Part shown: piece by piece, positions 51,288 through 61,966 of the stretch | Layout: every line of letters starts with the position of its first letter | Numbering within the stretch: the stretch's first letter is position 1 | Source of the DNA: Streptomyces sp. A1277 | Lineage (GTDB): Bacteria > Actinomycetota > Actinomycetes > Streptomycetales > Streptomycetaceae | NCBI RefSeq assembly: GCF_004795015.1 | Contig: NZ_SSBI01000001.1 | Coordinates: forward strand, 124,001 to 188,000 | Length of the DNA: 64,000 nt | Direction of reading: 5' to 3' | Notes under the pieces: generated by a model | The model's database searches: none | The model's input: the letters and a program-made list of their open reading frames with translations, nothing else | Told to the model about the DNA's origin: nothing | Program-made: the position numbers and the translations under genes

Positions 51288-54200
51288 TCAGGTGCCGATG
51301 TGTGCCAGCTCGGCCGGATGGGCGGGCGCGATCAGGTCGAAGACCTCATCCGGCCCGTTTCCGGCGCTCGCGCGGTCAGTCAGCAGATACGACTGTGCCT
51401 CGGCGACATGGAAGTACATGCCGTGGAGCTGAAGAGTGCCGTCGGCGATGCGGCGCGCCACCGATGGATGGGCCCGCAGATGATCGAGCTGCTGGACCAC
51501 GTTGGTCAGACAGAGTTGCTCCACCGCGTCGGCGGGCAGTCGGCCGGAGAGCCTGGCGGGGGCGTGATTGCCCGAGGCCACCCGCTCCAGGCTGGAAAGC
51601 CCGTGCCGTAGCCAGCGCCACAGCGACGTTTCCCGGGTGTCCGGCTCGGCCCCGAGGAGCGCGTTCATCGCGCCGCAGCCGGAGTGCCCGCACACGGTGA
51701 TGGACTGGACGCCGAGCATGTCCACCGCGTACTCGATAGCGGCCCCCACTGAATGGTCGCCGTCCTCGGCGTCCGGCGGTGGTACCAGGTTGCCGATGTT
51801 GCGCACGGTGAACAGGTCGCCCGGCCCACTGGCCGTGATCATGCTGGTCACCAGACGGGAGTCCGCGCAGGTGATGAAGAGCTGTGAGGGACGCTGACCT
51901 TCCTCGGCGAGCCGTGCCAGCTCCCCACGGACCAGGGGCGCCGTATCGCGCTGGAACGATCTGAGACCTCTGACCAGCCGGTGAGCGGCCATCGCGAGCG
52001 CGGGCCGGGTGGTGGGTGCGGGCTGCACAGGGCGTGGAGCCGGTGCGGGGCGCGGAGACGAGGCGGGGTGCGGAGACGAGGCTGGGTGCGCAGACGAGGC
52101 TGGGTGCGCAGACGAGGCGAGGTACGGAGCCGACGCGGGGTGCGCAGACGAGGCGAGGTACGGAGCCGACGCGGGGTGCGCAGACGAGGCGAGGTACGGA
52201 GCCGACGCGGGGTGCGCAGACGGGGCGAGGTACGGAGCCGACGCGGGGTGCGTGGGCTGCTGGGCTGGTTGGGTCGGGCCGGGGGCCCCGTCCGATTCGG
52301 TGCGGGGCATGGCCGGGGATGTGGTGTGGCTGGGGGTGGGGCCGGGGATGTGCTGGGCGGCGGCGGGGGGAGCGTTGTTGGTGGCGGGGCCGGTGGGGGC
52401 GGATGTGGCCTCGGGGGGCTCGGTGGGCGTGGCCGCGTGAGTGGAGGCGGCGGTGCCAGTGGCCGAGATTGGGGCAGGGGCAGGGGCAGGGGCAGGGGCA
52501 GGGGCAGGGGCAGGGGCAGGGGCAGAGCCGGTGGTGGGCTGGTGGTCGGGTCGGTCGGCGGTCGATCCTGTGGGCGGCGGCGCGTGTTCGGGCTGGTCGT
52601 GGCAGTGGTGGTTGCGCCACGGGGTCCACGGGCGGCAGCAGGAATGAGCCGCGGAGGCGGGCTCGGCGATTCTGTCGCCCGGTCTGCCGGCGAAGGCCAC
52701 TCGGCCGCCGTGCGCGGTATGGGCGTTGCTCCAGTCCTGGATTGCCTCGTATGCCGCGTGATCCATGAAGAAACCGTCCAGCTCGAGGAGTACGTCGGCG
52801 TCCTGGGGCAGCCGACCAAATGTTCGGCTGAGCCGTGGCACGGCCAGGAAGGTCAACTGCCCGCGTACGACGACGAGGTGCCGGCCGTGCTGTTCGTCGA
52901 CCGAAATGCGGGTGCGGGCCAGCCGATGCAGGGCGACCGCCACCGCCGCCGCGATCCCGATCGCCACGCCATTGAGAACGCCGACGAGCAGCACCCCGGC
53001 GATCGTCGCGCCGTACACAAGGAACTCGCGGTGCCTGTGGACGTTGCGGATGTGCGCCAAGCTCACCATCTTGAGGCCGACCATCATCACCAGCGCACCG
53101 AGAGCGGCCAGTGGGATGCGCTCCAGGGCGGTGACAAGCAGGGCGGAGGCGAGCAGAATCCACACGCCGTGCAACACGGTCGAGGCACGGCCGGTCGCCC
53201 CGGCCCGCACATTCGCCGAGCTGCGAACGGCCCCGCCGGAGACCGCCAGCCCACCCAGCAGGCCCGATACCGCATTGGCAACGCCTTGTGCGCGGAGCTC
53301 CCGGTCCAGGTCGGAGCGTCTGAGCGGGGGACCGGGCCGACCGGAGGCGGCTGCCTTCTGCCCGTTTCCTGCCACCGCTGCTCCGGCCGGCTGCTCACGG
53401 TTTCGGTCGGCGGCCAGCTTGTCCACGGCGACGGCGGCGAGCAGCGACTCGAGGCTGGCCACCAGCATCATCGTGAAGACGGCTGTAGCCAGTCCGAGCA
53501 CGGGGCCCTGCGGCATTTCGGGGAAGGCGTGCGAGCGCCAGGACGGCAGATCGACCCGGGCGATCGATGGCGCCGCCCATGCTGCAGCGGCGGTGGCGAG
53601 CCCTACGGAGGCCAGGGCTGCCGGAACGCGGCGCAGGAGCAGACCTGCCCGTCCGGGCATGCGCGGCCACAGCATCAGAATCGCGATGGTGAGCGCGCCG
53701 ATCAAGGGAGCCGCTGGACTGATACGTGCCAACTGCTCGGGTAGATGGAGAGCGTTGGAGACGGCGGAGCTCTGCGGTGAGCCGCCCAGCACGATGTGCA
53801 GTTGAGCGAGGGCGATAGCCACACCGATCCCGGCGAGCGTGCCATGCACGATGGCGGGACTGACGGCGAGTGCGCTGCGCGCTGCGCGCAGCGAACCCAG
53901 TGTGAGCTGAAGCAGTCCTGCTCCGATGGTGATGGCGCAGGTAGTGCGCCAGCCGTAGATCTGGATCACCTCGGCCGTCACCACGGTCAGTCCGGCGGAC
54001 GGGCCGGAGACCTGGAGGGGAGTCCCGCCGAGCAGTCCGGCGACGATGCCGCCGACCGCGGCGGAGATGAGGCCCGCTTCAAGCGGGGCGTTCATGGCGA
54101 CGGCCAGGCCCAGCGACATGGGGATGGCGAGCAGGAAGACGGTGATGGACGCGGACACGTCGGCGCCCGCGATCGGGAATCGGCCACCGCGCTGCGGTGG

Positions 54201-54290
54201 CGGGCTGTGTGGTCGCTTGACTCCCGAGGACCGGGGAGGGCGCGAGCTGCGGGACGAGCGGTCGTGACGAGTGGGTACGCAGGCAGACAT
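51288..54290 (-). CDS. SulP transporter-STAS-beta-carbonic anhydrase fusion
   Basis: A single 1000-residue frame: about 10-12 transmembrane helices of a SulP anion permease (40-470, e.g. SITVFLLAIPMSLGLAVAMNAPLEAGL), a STAS domain (about 480-560), a 200-residue Pro/Ala/Ser linker with tandem repeats, and a C-terminal beta-carbonic anhydrase (780-1000) with zinc ligands C808-D810 in CADSR and H869, C872 in CGHSGCG. Start ATG at 54290 behind AGGAGGAGA. SulP plus carbonic anhydrase suggests bicarbonate uptake coupled to hydration. The fusion is known in other bacteria, but the linker is unusual. Confidence 0.9.
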   Translation of the reverse strand: MSACVPTRHDRSSRSSRPPRSSGVKRPHSPPPQRGGRFPIAGADVSASITVFLLAIPMSLGLAVAMNAPLEAGLISAAVGGIVAGLLGGTPLQVSGPSAGLTVVTAEVIQIYGWRTTCAITIGAGLLQLTLGSLRAARSALAVSPAIVHGTLAGIGVAIALAQLHIVLGGSPQSSAVSNALHLPEQLARISPAAPLIGALTIAILMLWPRMPGRAGLLLRRVPAALASVGLATAAAAWAAPSIARVDLPSWRSHAFPEMPQGPVLGLATAVFTMMLVASLESLLAAVAVDKLAADRNREQPAGAAVAGNGQKAAASGRPGPPLRRSDLDRELRAQGVANAVSGLLGGLAVSGGAVRSSANVRAGATGRASTVLHGVWILLASALLVTALERIPLAALGALVMMVGLKMVSLAHIRNVHRHREFLVYGATIAGVLLVGVLNGVAIGIAAAVAVALHRLARTRISVDEQHGRHLVVVRGQLTFLAVPRLSRTFGRLPQDADVLLELDGFFMDHAAYEAIQDWSNAHTAHGGRVAFAGRPGDRIAEPASAAHSCCRPWTPWRNHHCHDQPEHAPPPTGSTADRPDHQPTTGSAPAPAPAPAPAPAPAPAPISATGTAASTHAATPTEPPEATSAPTGPATNNAPPAAAQHIPGPTPSHTTSPAMPRTESDGAPGPTQPAQQPTHPASAPYLAPSAHPASAPYLASSAHPASAPYLASSAHPASAPYLASSAHPASSAHPASSPHPASSPRPAPAPRPVQPAPTTRPALAMAAHRLVRGLRSFQRDTAPLVRGELARLAEEGQRPSQLFITCADSRLVTSMITASGPGDLFTVRNIGNLVPPPDAEDGDHSVGAAIEYAVDMLGVQSITVCGHSGCGAMNALLGAEPDTRETSLWRWLRHGLSSLERVASGNHAPARLSGRLPADAVEQLCLTNVVQQLDHLRAHPSVARRIADGTLQLHGMYFHVAEAQSYLLTDRASAGNGPDEVFDLIAPAHPAELAHIGT
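52105..52248 (-). repeat. Four 36-bp tandem repeats in the SulP-carbonic anhydrase linker
   Basis: Units at 52105, 52141, 52177 and 52213 are identical except for one substitution in the fourth. Each codes for the dodecapeptide HPASAPYLASSA, with shorter degenerate copies on both sides. Being a multiple of three, copy number can change without loss of the carbonic anhydrase domain. Confidence 0.95.
52471..52524 (-). repeat. Nine-copy GGGGCA hexanucleotide repeat in the fusion linker
   Basis: An uninterrupted 54-base run of GGGGCA units coding for alternating Pro-Ala on the minus strand. It is typical slipped-strand sequence. Confidence 0.95.
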
Positions 54291-56018: not shown

Positions 56019-57014
56019 TCAGACAGGCTGCACGGCTTCGGCCCCAATGCGGCGCTCGTCGAGCACGAAGGCCGGATCGACCTGGGCAGCGAGATCGGCA
56101 CCGGTCTTCTCGTTGCCCCAGCTCTCCGCGTTCCGCAGGTGGAAGTGGACCATCTGCCGTGTGTAACGGCCCCAGTCCCGCCGCTCGTACGAGTCCTCCG
56201 CGGCATTCTGCAAGGCTTGCAGGGCCATCCTGTTGTCCGCCTCCAGCAACTCGAAGCGTGCGGGACGGCCCTTCTCCATGGCCCGCACCCAGTCGGAGTG
56301 GCCGACGGTGACCAACAGGTCATCGCCCGCCTCGTCGCGCAGGAACTCCAGGTCGTCCTCGCCCTGCACCTTGTTGCCGACGACCTTCAGGTCAACGCCG
56401 AAGTCCCGTGCGTACTCCTTGTACTGGCGGTAGACGGAGACGCCCTTCCGGGTCGGCTCGGCGATGAGGAACGTCATGTCGAAGCGGGTGAACATCCCCG
56501 AGGCGAACGAATCCGAGCCGGCGGTCATGTCGACCACCACGTATTCGTCGGGTCCGTCAACGAGGTGGTTGAGACAGAGCTCAACCGCGCCGACCTTGGA
56601 GTGGTAGCAGGCCACACCGAGATCCGACTCGGTGAACGGCCCGGTCGCCATCAAGCGGACGTCTCCGTCGTCGAGCCGCACCGTGCGGGCGCAGGCGTCG
56701 TAGATCGGGTTGTCCTCGCGCACGCGCAGCAGGCGTGAGCCCTCGCCCGGCGGGGTCGTCTTGATCATCGTCTCGGCCGAGGCGATGCGCGGATTGCTGC
56801 CGCGCAGATACTCCTTGATCAGAGGCAGTTGCGCTCCCATGGCGGGCAGCGCTGCGGATTCCTCCTCGTCGAGGCCGAGAGCGGCCCCGAGGTGCTGATT
56901 GATGTCGGCGTCCACCGCGACGACGTGGGCTTCATTGGCGGCGAGGTGGCGGATGAAGAGCGAGGACAGCGTGGTCTTGCCGCTGCCGCCCTTCCCTACG
57001 AAAGCGATCTTCAT
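56019..57014 (-). CDS. MinD/CooC-like P-loop ATPase
   Basis: 331 residues from ATG 57014. Deviant Walker A FVGKGGSGKTTLSSLF, VVAVDADINQHLGAALG and VVVDMTAGSD are typical of the CooC/MinD group, and the N-terminus is unadorned. No arsenic- or nickel-binding Cys is evident. The C-terminal part (NRMALQALQNAAEDSYERR onward) is helical. Divergent from a protein with a degenerate Fic motif, 102 bases away, so a shared regulatory region is likely. Function unknown. Confidence 0.85.
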   Translation of the reverse strand: MKIAFVGKGGSGKTTLSSLFIRHLAANEAHVVAVDADINQHLGAALGLDEEESAALPAMGAQLPLIKEYLRGSNPRIASAETMIKTTPPGEGSRLLRVREDNPIYDACARTVRLDDGDVRLMATGPFTESDLGVACYHSKVGAVELCLNHLVDGPDEYVVVDMTAGSDSFASGMFTRFDMTFLIAEPTRKGVSVYRQYKEYARDFGVDLKVVGNKVQGEDDLEFLRDEAGDDLLVTVGHSDWVRAMEKGRPARFELLEADNRMALQALQNAAEDSYERRDWGRYTRQMVHFHLRNAESWGNEKTGADLAAQVDPAFVLDERRIGAEAVQPV

Positions 57015-57116
57015 GTTCACCTAAGGTAGTCGATCGATTGCTTTGTGTTGCAGGGTTTCGTGAAGAAGGCCACTCCCGGCCGGTGGTCGTGTCTGAGGCG
57101 CGTAGCCTCGCTACTT

Positions 57117-57941
57117 ATGAGTACGACTTCCTCGGACCCGCTTGTCGCTCTGGGTGCTCTGCCGGGCGTCACCGACGCGGTGGACTCGGTACGCAAGGCC
57201 GTCGACCGCGTCTACGGCCACCGCGTGATGCGGCGTCGCAGCAACGAGGTCACCGCGGAGGCCGCACTGCGGGGGGCCCGCGGGTCGGCCGCGCTGTCCG
57301 GCGCCGACTGGAACCTTGAGGAGGTGCGGCGGCGCACCGACTTCAGTGGTGACGGCGAGGCAGGTGTGATCGGGGCCGCTCTTCGCCTGACGGCGGAAGC
57401 GGGGCAGCTTCTGTCCATCTGGCGGCAGTCTCCGCTGCGCGTCCTGGCCCGGCTTCACCTGGTGGCTGCGGGCAGTGCCGCACCCGAGGATGCGGTGGGT
57501 CGACCCCGGCTCGCTGGTGAGCCGGTGGACGAGCCGCTGATCGAAGCGCCGTTGCCGAGCGCGGACGAAGTCGCGGGCCGACTGGACGGGCTGAGCCGGC
57601 TCATCCTCGCGGGAAGCGAGGCGCCCGCCCTGGTGACGGCCGCCGTCGTCCACGGAGAGTTGCTGGCCCTGCGTCCCTTCGGCTCCTGCAACGGCCTGGT
57701 GGCACGGACCGCGGAACGGATTGTGCTGATCGGAAGCGGGCTCGACCCGAAGTCGATCTGCCCGGCCGAAGTCGGTCACGCCGAACAGGGGCGGGCCGCA
57801 TATGTGGCGGCCTTCGACGGTTATCTGTCGGGATCGCCGGAAGGTATGGCGGCCTGGATCAAGCACTGCGGCCGCTCGGCGGAACTGGGTGTCCGCGAGT
57901 CGACGGCCGTGTGTGAGGCGCTTCAGCGGGGCGCCGCGTAG
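57117..57941 (+). CDS. Protein with degenerate Fic-domain motif
   Basis: 274 residues. At 186-197 the sequence RPFGSCNGLVAR aligns position by position with the Fic motif HPFxxGNGRxxR, but the catalytic His is Arg, Gly is Cys and the first Arg is Leu. Earlier, EAALRGARGSAALSGADWNLEEV (about 44-65) resembles the Fic inhibitory/substrate region. The rest is helical. With the His lost, AMP transfer is unlikely; it may be a binding or regulatory protein. ATG at 57117. Divergent from the MinD/CooC-like ATPase. Confidence 0.75.
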   Translation: MSTTSSDPLVALGALPGVTDAVDSVRKAVDRVYGHRVMRRRSNEVTAEAALRGARGSAALSGADWNLEEVRRRTDFSGDGEAGVIGAALRLTAEAGQLLSIWRQSPLRVLARLHLVAAGSAAPEDAVGRPRLAGEPVDEPLIEAPLPSADEVAGRLDGLSRLILAGSEAPALVTAAVVHGELLALRPFGSCNGLVARTAERIVLIGSGLDPKSICPAEVGHAEQGRAAYVAAFDGYLSGSPEGMAAWIKHCGRSAELGVRESTAVCEALQRGAA

Positions 57942-58003
57942 CGCGCTCCCCGCAGCCGGTGCCGGGGCACGTGTGGGTGGTGCGGGAACGGCGGGAAAGA
58001 ATT

Positions 58004-58030
58004 GCGGCGGTACCGGTCCGGTACCGCCGC
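58004..58030. terminator. Hairpin after the Fic-like gene
   Basis: A perfect 11-bp stem GCGGCGGTACC / GGTACCGCCGC with a 5-base loop, 63 bases after the stop codon. Confidence 0.65.
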
Positions 58031-58039
58031 CGGCACGTC

Positions 58040-58350
58040 CGCCCAGTTACCAAGCGTCCTCGATATGTGCCCATCAGGTCGGGTTCTTTGCCCGTTCCTG
58101 GTGCGGCTGGCCCGTAATCGACGGGTCGACGTCGCGTGGGTGCTGGGTCTCCGTGCGCGGTCCGTGGGGCCTTTACTGCGTCATCAGGTCATCCTCTCGG
58201 ATGTCCTTGGTCTCGCGGGCCGTTGAATCCTTTGTACTCCAGGTGCCGGGTGAGCGGTAGTGCTGGCTGCTCTTCTTTACTTTTAGGTTCAATTACGGAC
58301 GAGTTGGTCCAACGCGCCGTGCCAGTCGCCCCAGGTCGCGGCACTCGGAT
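58040..58350. ncRNA. Candidate 6S-like RNA region
   Basis: The 413-base gap between the two convergent genes lacks coding sequence and includes a less GC-rich stretch (58250-58300) and two copies of CATCAGGTC. From memory, in S. coelicolor the intergenic region between these two orthologues (SCO3558 and SCO3559) encodes a 6S-like RNA, scr3559. Strand and ends cannot be fixed from sequence alone, so this rests on synteny. Confidence 0.45.
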
Positions 58351-59194: not shown

Positions 59195-59693
59195 AGGGGC
59201 CCGCCATTCGGCGTAAACCCCAGCGCGTGGGTTTGCCTGAGAAGGCAGTCGGGTACACCATGGAAGTCACGGATCGTTCGCGACCGTGCTAACCCGGTCC
59301 GGCTCCTCCCCCCCCGAGTCGGCCGTGGGGACGACCCCCGCTCTCCCCCCCGGCGGGGGTCGTCGCATGTCCGGACGCGGTTCTCCGGTGCGGAACCAAT
59401 CATTTCTCCTCCTTCTTGCCCATGTCGGGCCATGTCTGTGCACGACTCCCTTCAGAGTGCGCTGTAACGCTGGGTAGCGAAAGAGTTGCAACCCGAAGTC
59501 ACTGGTACGGGCGATGGAGTTATTCACAACCGCTGAGTTGTCCACGGTTTTCGACCAAGATCCACTTGATTTCCCGAAGCGCTGCACCGTGATTCCACCC
59601 GTGAAGTCCACGGGTACCGGAATCACCGTTCTCGGAAGGCTCCGAGATCGTCGTCAACCACGACGAAGGTGAGCGATGTAGGGGGTGGAGAAC
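59195..59693. promoter_or_regulatory. Divergent region with hairpin and DnaA-box-like sites
   Basis: 499 bases between HAD phosphatase and ssd with no gene seen. A perfect 12-bp stem GACGACCCCCGC / GCGGGGGTCGTC lies at 59330-59364. At 59520-59528 TTATTCACA and at 59538-59546 TTGTCCACG are one-mismatch relatives of the Streptomyces DnaA box, 18 bases apart. Promoters for both genes should be here. Confidence 0.5.
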
Positions 59694-60821
59694 GTGGCTG
59701 AATCCAGTGCACGGGATCGTCTGCCGACTGCCGGCATGCGACGCGGCGGGCCGCTGATCGTGACCGAGGATGTGGAGCTGCTCGACGATCTGCTCAGGCT
59801 GTGCGCGGCCGCCGGTGCGGAGCCGGAAGTGCATCACACGCTGCCCGAGCGCAGAGGGGGATGGGATCACGCTCCGATGGTGCTCGTCGGTGACGACGCG
59901 GCCGCGCGGTGCCGAGGGGCGACGCGCAGGCGGGGCGTAATGCTCGTGGGCCGGGACCAGGACTCACCCGACGTCTGGCGCCAAGCCGTCGAGATCGGGG
60001 CCGAGTATGTGCTTCGGCTGCCCGATTCCGAAAGCTGGCTCGTGGATCAGATCGCCAACGCGGCGGAGGGTGTCGGCCGGCCCGCGCTCACGGTAGGCGT
60101 GATCGGGGGTCGGGGTGGTGCCGGTGCCTCCACCTTGGCGTGTGCTCTTGCCGTGGCTGCGGCGAGAGCCGGCCAACGAACGATGCTCATCGACGGGGAC
60201 CCGCTGGGGGGCGGTATCGACGTGCTGCTCGGTGGTGAGAGGGCCGAGGGAATGAGGTGGCCTGATTTCGCCCATTCCCAAGGGCGGGTCGGTGGGGGCG
60301 CCCTGGAGGAGTCGCTGCCCGCGTTGCATGGGTTGCGGGTACTCAGCTGGGGCCGTGACGACTGGGTCGTCATTCCGCCGCCGGCCATGAGGTCGGTTCT
60401 GGCTGCGGCGCGCAGGCTCGGCGGAGTGGTGGTGGTCGATCTGCCGCGTCGGGTGGACGAGGCGGTGGCCGAAGCCCTTGCCCAGCTCGACCTGGGCCTT
60501 GTGGTCGTTCCGGGGGAACTGCGTGCGGTCGCGGCGGCGAAGCGGGTGGTGTCGATGGCGGGGATGGTGCTGGACGACCTCCGGGTGGTGGCACGGGGGC
60601 CGTACGCGTCCGGACTCGACGAGCAATGGGTGGCCGATGCCATGGGCCTGCCACTGGCCGGTGAAGTCCCCCTGGAGAGGGGCTTGCTGGCCGAGCAGAA
60701 CATGGGCGAGCCTCCCGGTGGTAGTGCGCGGGGCCCGCTTGCCAGGTTCTGCACCGCATTCTGGGAACAGGCTCTCGTCGGGGAGGCCACCAAGGGCCCG
60801 ATCGTGGGGGGCGTCTCATGA
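59694..60821 (+). CDS. ssd: Septum-site-determining protein Ssd / TadZ-like ATPase
   Basis: 375 residues. An N-terminal receiver-like part (GGPLIVTEDVELLDDLLRLCAAAGAEPEV) and a CpaE/MinD-type ATPase domain (VGVIGGRGGAGASTLACALAVAA as deviant Walker A, MLIDGDPLGGGIDVLLG, VVVDLPRR). It is the TadZ/CpaE position in a Tad locus, and related actinobacterial proteins were described as septum-site regulators. I chose GTG 59694 over 59685 because the SD GGGGG fits only the former. It overlaps tadA by four bases. Confidence 0.9.
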   Translation: MAESSARDRLPTAGMRRGGPLIVTEDVELLDDLLRLCAAAGAEPEVHHTLPERRGGWDHAPMVLVGDDAAARCRGATRRRGVMLVGRDQDSPDVWRQAVEIGAEYVLRLPDSESWLVDQIANAAEGVGRPALTVGVIGGRGGAGASTLACALAVAAARAGQRTMLIDGDPLGGGIDVLLGGERAEGMRWPDFAHSQGRVGGGALEESLPALHGLRVLSWGRDDWVVIPPPAMRSVLAAARRLGGVVVVDLPRRVDEAVAEALAQLDLGLVVVPGELRAVAAAKRVVSMAGMVLDDLRVVARGPYASGLDEQWVADAMGLPLAGEVPLERGLLAEQNMGEPPGGSARGPLARFCTAFWEQALVGEATKGPIVGGVS

Positions 60822-61966
60822 CCGAGGCACTGCTCGATGCCGTACGGCAACGGCTTGCGCACAGCGGCACAGCGCCGACCCCGGCCGGGGTGGCTGCCGC
60901 GTTGCGCGCGCAGGGACGGTTGCTCGGCACGGCGGAAGTGCTCGGCAGAGCCGATGAGCTGCGCGGTGAGCTGATCGGTACGGGCGTGCTGGAACCGCTC
61001 TTGGCCGACCCCCGGGTCACGGATGTCCTGGTGTCCGCGCCCGATCGGGTGTGGGTGGACCGGGGAGGCGGACTTGAACTCACCGAGGTGACCTTCGCCG
61101 ACGCGGCGGCCGTCCGCAGGCTGGCGCAGCGGCTCGCGGCCGTGGCGGGGAGGCGGCTGGACGACGCCCGACCCTGGGTGGACGCGAGGCTTCCGGACGG
61201 GACCCGGATGCATGCTGTGCTGCCCCCGGTGTCCGTCGGTTCGACGTGCCTGTCGCTACGGGTGGTCAGACCCAGGGCGTTCTCGCTGGCGGAGCTGGTC
61301 GAAGCCGGAACGGTGCCGCCGGGAGGCGACCGGGTGCTGAGGGCTCTGGTGGAGGCCCGGGTCTCGTACCTGATCAGCGGGGGGACGGGAGCAGGGAAGA
61401 CCACCCTCCTTTCGAGCCTGCTGGGTGCGGTGGGGGAACGCGAGCGGATCGTGCTCGCCGAGGATTCGGCGGAGCTGCGGCCGGACCACCCGCACGTCGT
61501 GCGGCTGGAGTCGCGCCCCGCGAATCAGGAGGGTGCCGGACGGGTGACCCTCAGGGATCTGGTGCGCCAAGCCCTGCGCATGCGTCCCGACCGGCTGGTG
61601 GTCGGTGAGGTGCGGGGAAGCGAGGTCACCGAGCTCCTGGCTGCCCTGAATACGGGACATGAAGGCGGGTGCGGGACTGTTCATGCCAATGCCGCAGGAC
61701 GTGTTCCGGCCCGGTTGGAGGCGCTTGGGACTGCGGCGGGCCTGGACCGGGCAGCGTTGCACAGCCAGTTGGCGGCGGCCTTGTCAGTGGTCGTTCACCT
61801 TGCGCGTGACCGTGCGGGGCGTCGCCGGATTGCCGATGTCCACGTGCTGGAACGGGATGCGACGGGCCTGGTGGTCACGGTGCCGGCGCTGCGTTGGAGC
61901 GCTGCGGGTTTCGAGCGGGAACGGGGCTGGGAGCGGCTGCGGGAGCTTACCGGGGGCGTGTTGTGA
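60818..61966 (+). CDS. tadA: Tad pilus ATPase TadA (CpaF)
   Basis: 382-residue secretion ATPase of the type II/IV superfamily. Walker A GGTGAGKTTLLSSLLG, the Asp-box region LAEDSAELRPDHPHVVRLESRP, Walker B LVVGEVRGSE and His-box GHEGGCGTVHANAA are all clear. It powers assembly of Tad/Flp pili. ATG overlaps the ssd stop; its own stop overlaps tadB start, so the four genes are translationally coupled. Confidence 0.96.
   Translation: MTEALLDAVRQRLAHSGTAPTPAGVAAALRAQGRLLGTAEVLGRADELRGELIGTGVLEPLLADPRVTDVLVSAPDRVWVDRGGGLELTEVTFADAAAVRRLAQRLAAVAGRRLDDARPWVDARLPDGTRMHAVLPPVSVGSTCLSLRVVRPRAFSLAELVEAGTVPPGGDRVLRALVEARVSYLISGGTGAGKTTLLSSLLGAVGERERIVLAEDSAELRPDHPHVVRLESRPANQEGAGRVTLRDLVRQALRMRPDRLVVGEVRGSEVTELLAALNTGHEGGCGTVHANAAGRVPARLEALGTAAGLDRAALHSQLAAALSVVVHLARDRAGRRRIADVHVLERDATGLVVTVPALRWSAAGFERERGWERLRELTGGVL

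What the first reader, a model, noticed from the sequence alone, without database searches (positions are those of the whole stretch)
56019..57941. Divergent pair: MinD/CooC-like ATPase and a Fic-like protein without the catalytic His
Seen: RPFGSCNGLVAR at residues 186-197 matches HPFxxGNGRxxR except for H-to-R, G-to-C and R-to-L, while Phe, Asn, Gly and the last Arg are kept. An upstream segment resembles the Fic inhibitory helix region. The ATPase gene lies 102 bases away in the opposite direction. Known: Fic proteins need His for AMPylation. Inference: a pseudoenzyme or new nucleotide-binding chemistry, possibly sensing or regulating the ATPase. Close to the 6S-like RNA, HAD phosphatase and Tad locus.
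Basis: partly seen in the sequence, partly recalled or inferred. Interest (0 to 1): 0.6.

Follow-up and report, generated by a model that had tools for sequence, protein, structure and literature searches.

The report
Inactive-looking Fic protein kept across actinobacteria
Most sampled actinomycetes carry, beside a cell-division and pilus gene cluster, a protein folded like the Fic enzymes that tag other proteins but lacking the residues Fic enzymes use for that, so it probably works as a sensor or binding partner and not as a tagging enzyme.

Summary
Window 57117-57941 (+) encodes a 274-aa protein with RPFGSCNGLVAR at residues 186-197. Its AlphaFold2 model (pLDDT 93.7) is a complete Fic fold with the N-terminal inhibitory-helix segment (Z 25.9 over 249 residues to M. 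marinum Fic 7cb8). It is no private oddity: 150 of 150 sampled Streptomycetaceae carry it, and 217 of 297 genomes of the class match strongly. By position it is S. coelicolor SCO3559 and M. tuberculosis Rv3662c. Purifying selection is strong (dN/dS 0.06-0.14). With the motif columns left out, the tree needs one loss of the motif Asp shared by the whole lineage and one loss of the catalytic His: deep relatives read HPFDAANGRLAR or QPFEAANGRVAR, class members RPF..NG.VAR. A new Asp-Pro/Glu signature replaces canonical residues, so it is most likely a non-AMPylating Fic pseudoenzyme. The long-lived neighbours are Ssd/TadA (Ssd within 12 kb in 66 of 72 genomes), a HAD-IB phosphatase and Ms1 RNA. 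Function remains inferred.

The parts
57117..57941 (+). Fic-fold protein without the catalytic His (SCO3559/Rv3662c-position gene), 274 aa
57672..57707 (+). degenerate Fic motif RPFGSCNGLVAR (residues 186-197); canonical HPFx(D/E)GNGRxxR
57285..57302 (+). inhibitory-helix motif SAALSG (residues 57-62), Glu replaced by Ser
57738..57770 (+). lineage signature region GLDPKSICPAE (residues 208-218; D210, P211, E218), not found in canonical Fic proteins
   Evidence: numbers there are 5 lower
56019..57020 (-). CooC/MinD-like P-loop ATPase (GKGGSGKTT), divergent neighbour; adjacent only in Streptomycetaceae
57021..57116 (.). divergent promoter region with the conserved element GTGAAGAAGGCCACTC at 57060-57075
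58001..58245 (-). conserved structured RNA in the position of Ms1/scr3559 (6S-like, binds RNA polymerase core in S. coelicolor), ends in a terminator-like hairpin
   Evidence: PMC9130861
58355..59194 (-). HAD-IB family phosphatase (TIGR01490), SCO3558/Rv3661 position
59293..59368 (+). 6C RNA (RF01066), 43.4 bits, just under the curated cut-off of 47
59685..60821 (+). septum site-determining protein Ssd (TIGR03815), CpaE-like ATPase
60818..61966 (+). TadA-like secretion ATPase, first gene of the Tad cluster (named from its sequence; used as the TadA query)

Best explanation
The gene encodes a class II-type Fic fold that has lost AMPylation and is kept as a regulatory pseudoenzyme. Shown: the fold; loss of the catalytic His, the motif acid, the first motif Arg and (in the window protein) the inhibitory Glu; strict retention of Pro-Phe and of the last motif Arg (R197); a new invariant Asp (D210) and a Glu (E218) found throughout this lineage but not in canonical Fics; strong purifying selection; and long-lived linkage to Ssd/TadA and, in other classes, to a HAD-IB phosphatase. 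Inferred: the remodelled pocket still holds a phosphate-bearing ligand (nucleotide or similar) through R197, and the protein works by binding. Ligand state, read out through the former inhibitory helix, would decide whether it docks on a partner encoded at the same locus, most plausibly Ssd (itself a MinD/CpaE-type ATPase) or the HAD-IB phosphatase, linking envelope or stationary-phase state to septum or pilus placement. The CooC/MinD-like ATPase next door is a neighbour particular to Streptomycetaceae.
For: Fold: pLDDT 93.7; Z 25.9, 249 residues, rmsd 2.6 to 7cb8, and Z 23-25 to SoFic and FICD; profile E 1.1e-15. Catalytic loss: R in all Streptomycetaceae inspected, R/A/K/Q/E elsewhere in the class; the motif acid is absent in 46 of 46 lineage members and present in 21 of 21 canonical Fics, one change on a tree built without the motif columns; His loss needs one change. 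Remodelling: D210 at 100% in both branches, E218 at 85% and 92%, neither in canonical Fics. Selection: dN/dS 0.06-0.14. Locus: Ssd within 12 kb in 66 of 72; Ssd in 213 of 217 genomes with a strong match versus 49 of 80 without; HAD upstream on the same strand in 12 of 13 deep loci. Regulation: SCO3559 is in the sigma-E regulon table (PMC6767563); Rv3662c rises 5.8-fold when whiB1 is underexpressed (PMC5741622). Rv3662c was not among the clones that affected growth of M. smegmatis (PMC6504116).
Against: Long synteny does not prove physical interaction: Ms1, HAD, Ssd and Tad may simply be a stable block. Some class loci lack the HAD gene near the Fic gene (HAD in 16 of 27). An invariant Asp and a conserved Glu are also what a rebuilt active site would look like. 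An IbpA His-to-Ala mutant keeps some activity (reported in PMC4454073), so His loss alone does not prove inactivity.
Confidence: 0.55

Rival explanations
1. It is an active enzyme with a rebuilt site: the His/acid/Ser set of AMPylating Fics was replaced by D210, E218, R197 and R201, which catalyse a different transfer or hydrolysis.
For: D210, P211, R201 and E218 are conserved across the whole lineage, including deep HAD-linked members, and not shared by canonical Fics. Very strong purifying selection. Fic folds with altered motifs do phosphocholination or phosphorylation (PMC8401265).
Against: The residue at the His position itself drifts (R, A, K, Q, E), and the two Gly and the Asn of the loop also vary, which is unusual for a working phosphotransfer site.
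Confidence: 0.2
2. One reading: it senses a nucleotide and regulates the divergently transcribed CooC/MinD-like ATPase.
For: 127 of 136 Streptomycetaceae keep the divergent pair with gaps of 67-370 bases, and the shared promoter region holds a conserved 16-base element.
Against: Outside the family the two genes are never adjacent (0 of 26), and most class genomes with the Fic gene lack the ATPase (58 of 297 have it). Nine listed Streptomycetaceae lack an adjacent intact copy while keeping the Fic gene (L021).
Confidence: 0.08
3. It keeps weak AMPylation, or deAMPylation, despite the His loss.
For: Residual activity of an IbpA His-to-Ala mutant is reported, and H-to-Q Doc clades persist (PMC4454073). 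F188 and R197 are kept.
Against: The motif acid and the first motif Arg are gone together with the His, and the Asn is D or S in many members.
Confidence: 0.09
4. It is a FicTA/Doc-like toxin or part of a toxin-antitoxin module.
For: Rv3662c was listed as a putative toxin by TASmania from an InterPro hit (PMC6504116).
Against: In the same paper it was among eleven candidates tested and not among the six that affected growth. No small antitoxin gene was noted beside it; it is single-copy here and universal in the family.
Confidence: 0.03
5. A decaying pseudogene.
For: Catalytic residues lost.
Against: dN/dS 0.06-0.14, no stops inside the listed Streptomycetaceae matches, 150 of 150 presence, high-confidence fold.
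Confidence: 0.01

Closest known systems
Class II Fic AMPylators (SoFic 3zcn/3eqx, Dde_2494 4rgl, human FICD, M. marinum Fic 7cb8)
   Same: Whole-length fold including the N-terminal inhibitory helix (Z 23-26); conserved GxxR, H179, Pro-Phe and last Arg of the motif.
   Different: No catalytic His, no motif Asp/Glu, no first motif Arg, no inhibitory Glu in the window protein; new D210-P211/E218 signature.
Degenerate Fic domains: Bartonella BepC and Bep8, Doc clade D2 (His to Gln)
   Same: Fic folds whose motif no longer supports, or has not been shown to support, AMPylation; BepC acts by binding GEF-H1 (PMC8401265).
   Different: Those are host-targeted effectors or Doc proteins; this lineage is chromosomal, widespread in actinomycetes and linked to Ssd/Tad and Ms1. 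It forms its own clade apart from canonical actinobacterial Fics (support 100/99).
SCO3559 / Rv3662c, the Ms1-flanking gene annotated 'oxidoreductase' or 'Fic' (PMC9130861)
   Same: Same position: Fic-like gene, Ms1 RNA, HAD-IB phosphatase, 6C RNA, Ssd.
   Different: That paper treats 'oxidoreductase' and 'Fic' as synonyms; no fold, motif loss or evolution of the gene was found in the passages read. Orthology is inferred from position here, as those two sequences were not compared directly.
CooC/MinD-type ATPases (3kje CooC)
   Same: The neighbour ATPase matches CooC over residues 3-236 (E 1.4e-11), with a deviant Walker A GKGGSGKTT.
   Different: Streptomycetaceae-only neighbour of the Fic gene; no CO dehydrogenase was sought at this locus.

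Membership tests
Fic (Fido) fold superfamily | Fic core fold with the active-site loop between two helices | tested here: met
   AlphaFold2 model pLDDT 93.7, Z 25.9 over 249 residues to 7cb8.
Fic (Fido) fold superfamily | Pfam PF02661 match above the curated cut-off | tested here: not met
   16.9 bits against 24 for the window protein; 31 of 42 family members match PF02661 at E <= 0.01, best 1.6e-7.
AMPylating Fic proteins | Motif HPFx(D/E)GNGRxxR with catalytic His | tested here: not met
   RPFGSCNGLVAR; no His in any class member aligned.
AMPylating Fic proteins | Acidic Mg-binding residue in the motif | tested here: not met
   Absent in 46 of 46 lineage members, present in 21 of 21 canonical Fics.
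AMPylating Fic proteins | Transfer of AMP to a target protein | not testable with these tools
   Needs labelled-ATP assays.
Class II (N-terminal inhibitory helix) Fic | Helix with (S/T)xxxE(G/N) N-terminal to the core | tested here: inconclusive
   Helix and Ser/Gly kept (SAALSG); the Glu is S, A, D or E within the family.
FicTA/Doc toxin modules | Toxicity and an adjacent small antitoxin | not tested
   No antitoxin-like gene noted beside it; a published assay of Rv3662c listed no growth effect (PMC6504116).
Functional pair with the CooC/MinD-like ATPase | Co-occurrence and adjacency across lineages | tested here: not met
   127 of 136 in Streptomycetaceae but 0 of 26 outside; ATPase in 58 of 297 class genomes.
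Ssd/Tad locus member | Conserved position near Ssd/TadA | tested here: met
   66 of 72 non-Streptomycetaceae genomes have Ssd within 12 kb, 61 within 5 kb.

The most novel reading that the evidence does not exclude
An ancient actinobacterial branch of the Fic superfamily in which the AMPylation site was dismantled stepwise (motif acid first, then His) and the pocket rebuilt around an invariant Asp-Pro and a Glu, giving either a ligand-gated adaptor or a new chemistry that works with the HAD-IB phosphatase and the Ssd ATPase at the Ms1 RNA locus, in organisms from Streptomyces to mycobacteria.
Probability: 0.3. Interest if true: 0.75.

Novelty: new variant of a known kind. Interest (0 to 1): 0.5.

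Why it matters
The gene is annotated 'oxidoreductase' or hypothetical in organisms that include, by position, S. coelicolor and M. tuberculosis, although its fold is clearly Fic. If the pseudoenzyme reading is right, it is a widespread, strongly selected non-catalytic Fic family kept in one place on the chromosome, unlike the scattered degenerate Fics known so far. It also gives a concrete candidate partner for Ssd (which promotes filamentation in M. tuberculosis, PMC3095998) and for the CicA-like HAD phosphatase beside Ms1, whose roles are open. The series HPF, QPF, RPF is a natural experiment in how a Fic enzyme stops being one.

Tried and rejected
Pfam and NCBIfam on the single protein: below cut-offs; PHROGs: nothing. 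Rfam at the gathering threshold did not report 6C or Ms1; 6C appeared only with the E-value threshold, and Ms1 was recognised from conservation, a folded alignment and its published position. The conserved 16-base intergenic element was tested as a regulon marker: the only exact copy in the genome is here, so no regulon. The toxin reading was dropped after the published growth assay. A first tree included the motif columns; it was rebuilt without the motif and inhibitory columns and without the longest branches, with the same split. Clustering neighbouring ORFs in all frames was noisy from high-GC overlapping frames; only families confirmed by profile or position were used. Direct comparison with the Rv3662c and SCO3559 sequences was not made (the single genome-collection scan did not return those species), so orthology rests on position. 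Distances inside the modelled pocket were not measured, because model coordinates are not exposed. The ATPase was not modelled, and the context of its paralogs was not examined.

Full report
What is there. The ATPase gene runs 56019-57020 on the minus strand and the Fic-like gene 57117-57941 on the plus strand, with 96 bases between them (102 if the ATPase begins at the in-frame ATG 57014). Against HPFx(D/E)GNGRxxR the changes are H to R, the acid to S, the first G to C and the first R to L; P, F, N, second G and last R are kept.

Is it Fic? On its own the protein scores 16.9 bits against Pfam's Fic model (cut-off 24), which may explain why it is annotated otherwise. Better tests agree that it is. 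phmmer against the PDB returns a mycobacterial Fic protein first; a profile of 42 relatives gives that protein at E 1.1e-15 and FICD, Dde_2494 and IbpA below it; PADLOC's SoFic model hits at 2.2e-6. An AlphaFold2 model from the window protein plus 41 relatives has mean pLDDT 93.7. Foldseek's 40 matches at E <= 0.001 are all Fic proteins, and VIA-align gives Z 25.9 over 249 residues to 7cb8 and 25.0 to SoFic, spanning residues 5-274, so the N-terminal inhibitory-helix part is present too. At the end of that helix the window has SAALSG where class II Fics have (S/T)xxxE(G/N); the family has S, D, E or A at the Glu position.

How widespread and how constrained. One copy exists in this genome, and the gene was found in 150 of 150 sampled Streptomycetaceae genomes. 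In a sample of 297 genomes of the class, 239 match at E <= 0.001; leaving out 22 weak ones (E above 1e-20, probably other Fics), 217 match strongly. dN/dS between Streptomyces orthologs is 0.06-0.14, so it is not decaying.

History of the motif. In the class the His position is R in most members and A, K, Q or E in others, never H. Distant relatives elsewhere in the phylum (L118-L130) read HPF(D/E)(A/S)ANGRLAR, or start with Q, R or M as in QPFEAANGRVAR. A tree built without the motif and inhibitory-helix columns separates canonical actinobacterial Fics from this lineage (100/99), puts the class members in one clade (100/100), and needs one change for loss of the motif acid and one for loss of His. 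The root is not fixed by the data, so the order acid-then-His is the reading in which canonical Fics are the outgroup. The inhibitory Glu changed many times (15 by the same count; its alignment in the deep members is poor). Columns that distinguish this lineage from canonical Fics include R201, G208, D210, P211 and E218 (where numbers are 5 lower); D210 is invariant in both branches and E218 stands where canonical Fics mostly have Ser, possibly the ribose-contacting Ser/Cys described for Bep proteins (PMC8401265; this equation is an inference).

The locus. Downstream, on the minus strand at about 58001-58245, lies a conserved structured RNA ending in a terminator-like hairpin; its long imperfect stem shows compensatory changes. 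Its place between the Fic-like gene and the HAD gene is that of Ms1/scr3559, which binds the RNA polymerase core in S. coelicolor (PMC9130861), and of MTS2823/Ms1 between rv3661 and rv3662c (PMC8628891). Then come the HAD-IB phosphatase (TIGR01490, 200 bits), a 6C RNA, Ssd (TIGR03815, 355 bits) and TadA. By position the Fic-like gene is therefore SCO3559/Rv3662c. PMC9130861 used 'oxidoreductase' and 'Fic' as interchangeable annotations of this flanking gene.

Which neighbour matters. The ATPase is a CooC/MinD-type P-loop protein (Pfam CbiA 31.3 bits; CooC 3kje E 1.4e-11). It is the divergent neighbour in 127 of 136 Streptomycetaceae whose Fic coordinates were listed. In the other nine no adjacent ATPase was listed; it is absent, broken or only present as a distant paralog, with the Fic gene kept. 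In the class sample only 58 of 297 genomes, Streptomyces included, have the ATPase, and in the 26 non-Streptomycetaceae with both coordinates listed it is never near the Fic gene. By contrast Ssd lies within 12 kb of the Fic-like gene in 66 of 72 non-Streptomycetaceae genomes, the other six being on different contigs; Ssd is found in 213 of 217 genomes with a strong Fic-like match and 49 of 80 without (counted; test; related genomes are not independent). The HAD gene is beside it in 16 of 27 class loci and, immediately upstream on the same strand, in 12 of 13 deep loci.

How it most likely works. Shown: Fic fold, loss of the AMPylation set, retention of the last motif Arg and of Pro-Phe, a lineage-specific Asp/Glu signature, strong selection, and linkage to Ssd/Tad, HAD-IB and Ms1. 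Inferred: it binds a phosphate-bearing ligand and a partner from the locus, and acts as a regulator without transferring AMP. Published expression data fit a regulated role: SCO3559 is in the sigma-E regulon table (PMC6767563) and Rv3662c rises 5.8-fold when whiB1 is underexpressed (PMC5741622). Rv3662c was tested as a possible toxin and is not among those that affected growth (PMC6504116). A rebuilt active site with another chemistry is the main rival and is not excluded.

Novelty. Degenerate Fic domains are known (BepC, Bep8, Doc clade D2; PMC8401265, PMC4454073). No description of this lineage as a Fic pseudoenzyme family turned up in the papers searched, but that library is partial. It is best called a new variant of a known kind.

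Noticed in passing
window 57060-57075: A 16-base element GTGAAGAAG(A/G)CCACTC between the divergent ATPase and Fic-like genes is conserved in most Streptomyces aligned and has no other exact copy in the genome.
   Followed up: partly
L118-L130 (other classes of the phylum): The deep His-bearing or Gln-bearing relatives share a flap-region motif like EQAVHDGAxGRxxY and lie directly downstream of a HAD-IB gene on the same strand, which suggests an operon.
   Followed up: partly
window 59293-59368: The 6C RNA scores 43.4 bits, just under Rfam's cut-off of 47, so a default Rfam run misses it here.
   Followed up: no
window 51288-54290: A 1000-aa minus-strand ORF looks like a SulP-type transporter fused to a carbonic anhydrase, with a Pro/Ala/Ser-rich linker of repeated HPASAPYLA units.
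   Followed up: no
genomes G083, G089, G095, G009, G103 and others: Several Streptomycetaceae carry a second CooC/MinD-like ATPase (about 62-67% identical to the query) elsewhere in the genome, similar in identity to the copies found outside the family; its context was not examined.
   Followed up: no
G000:C60, C56, C34: The genome has three other proteins that do pass Pfam's Fic cut-off, so ordinary Fic or Doc-type genes coexist with this one.
   Followed up: no
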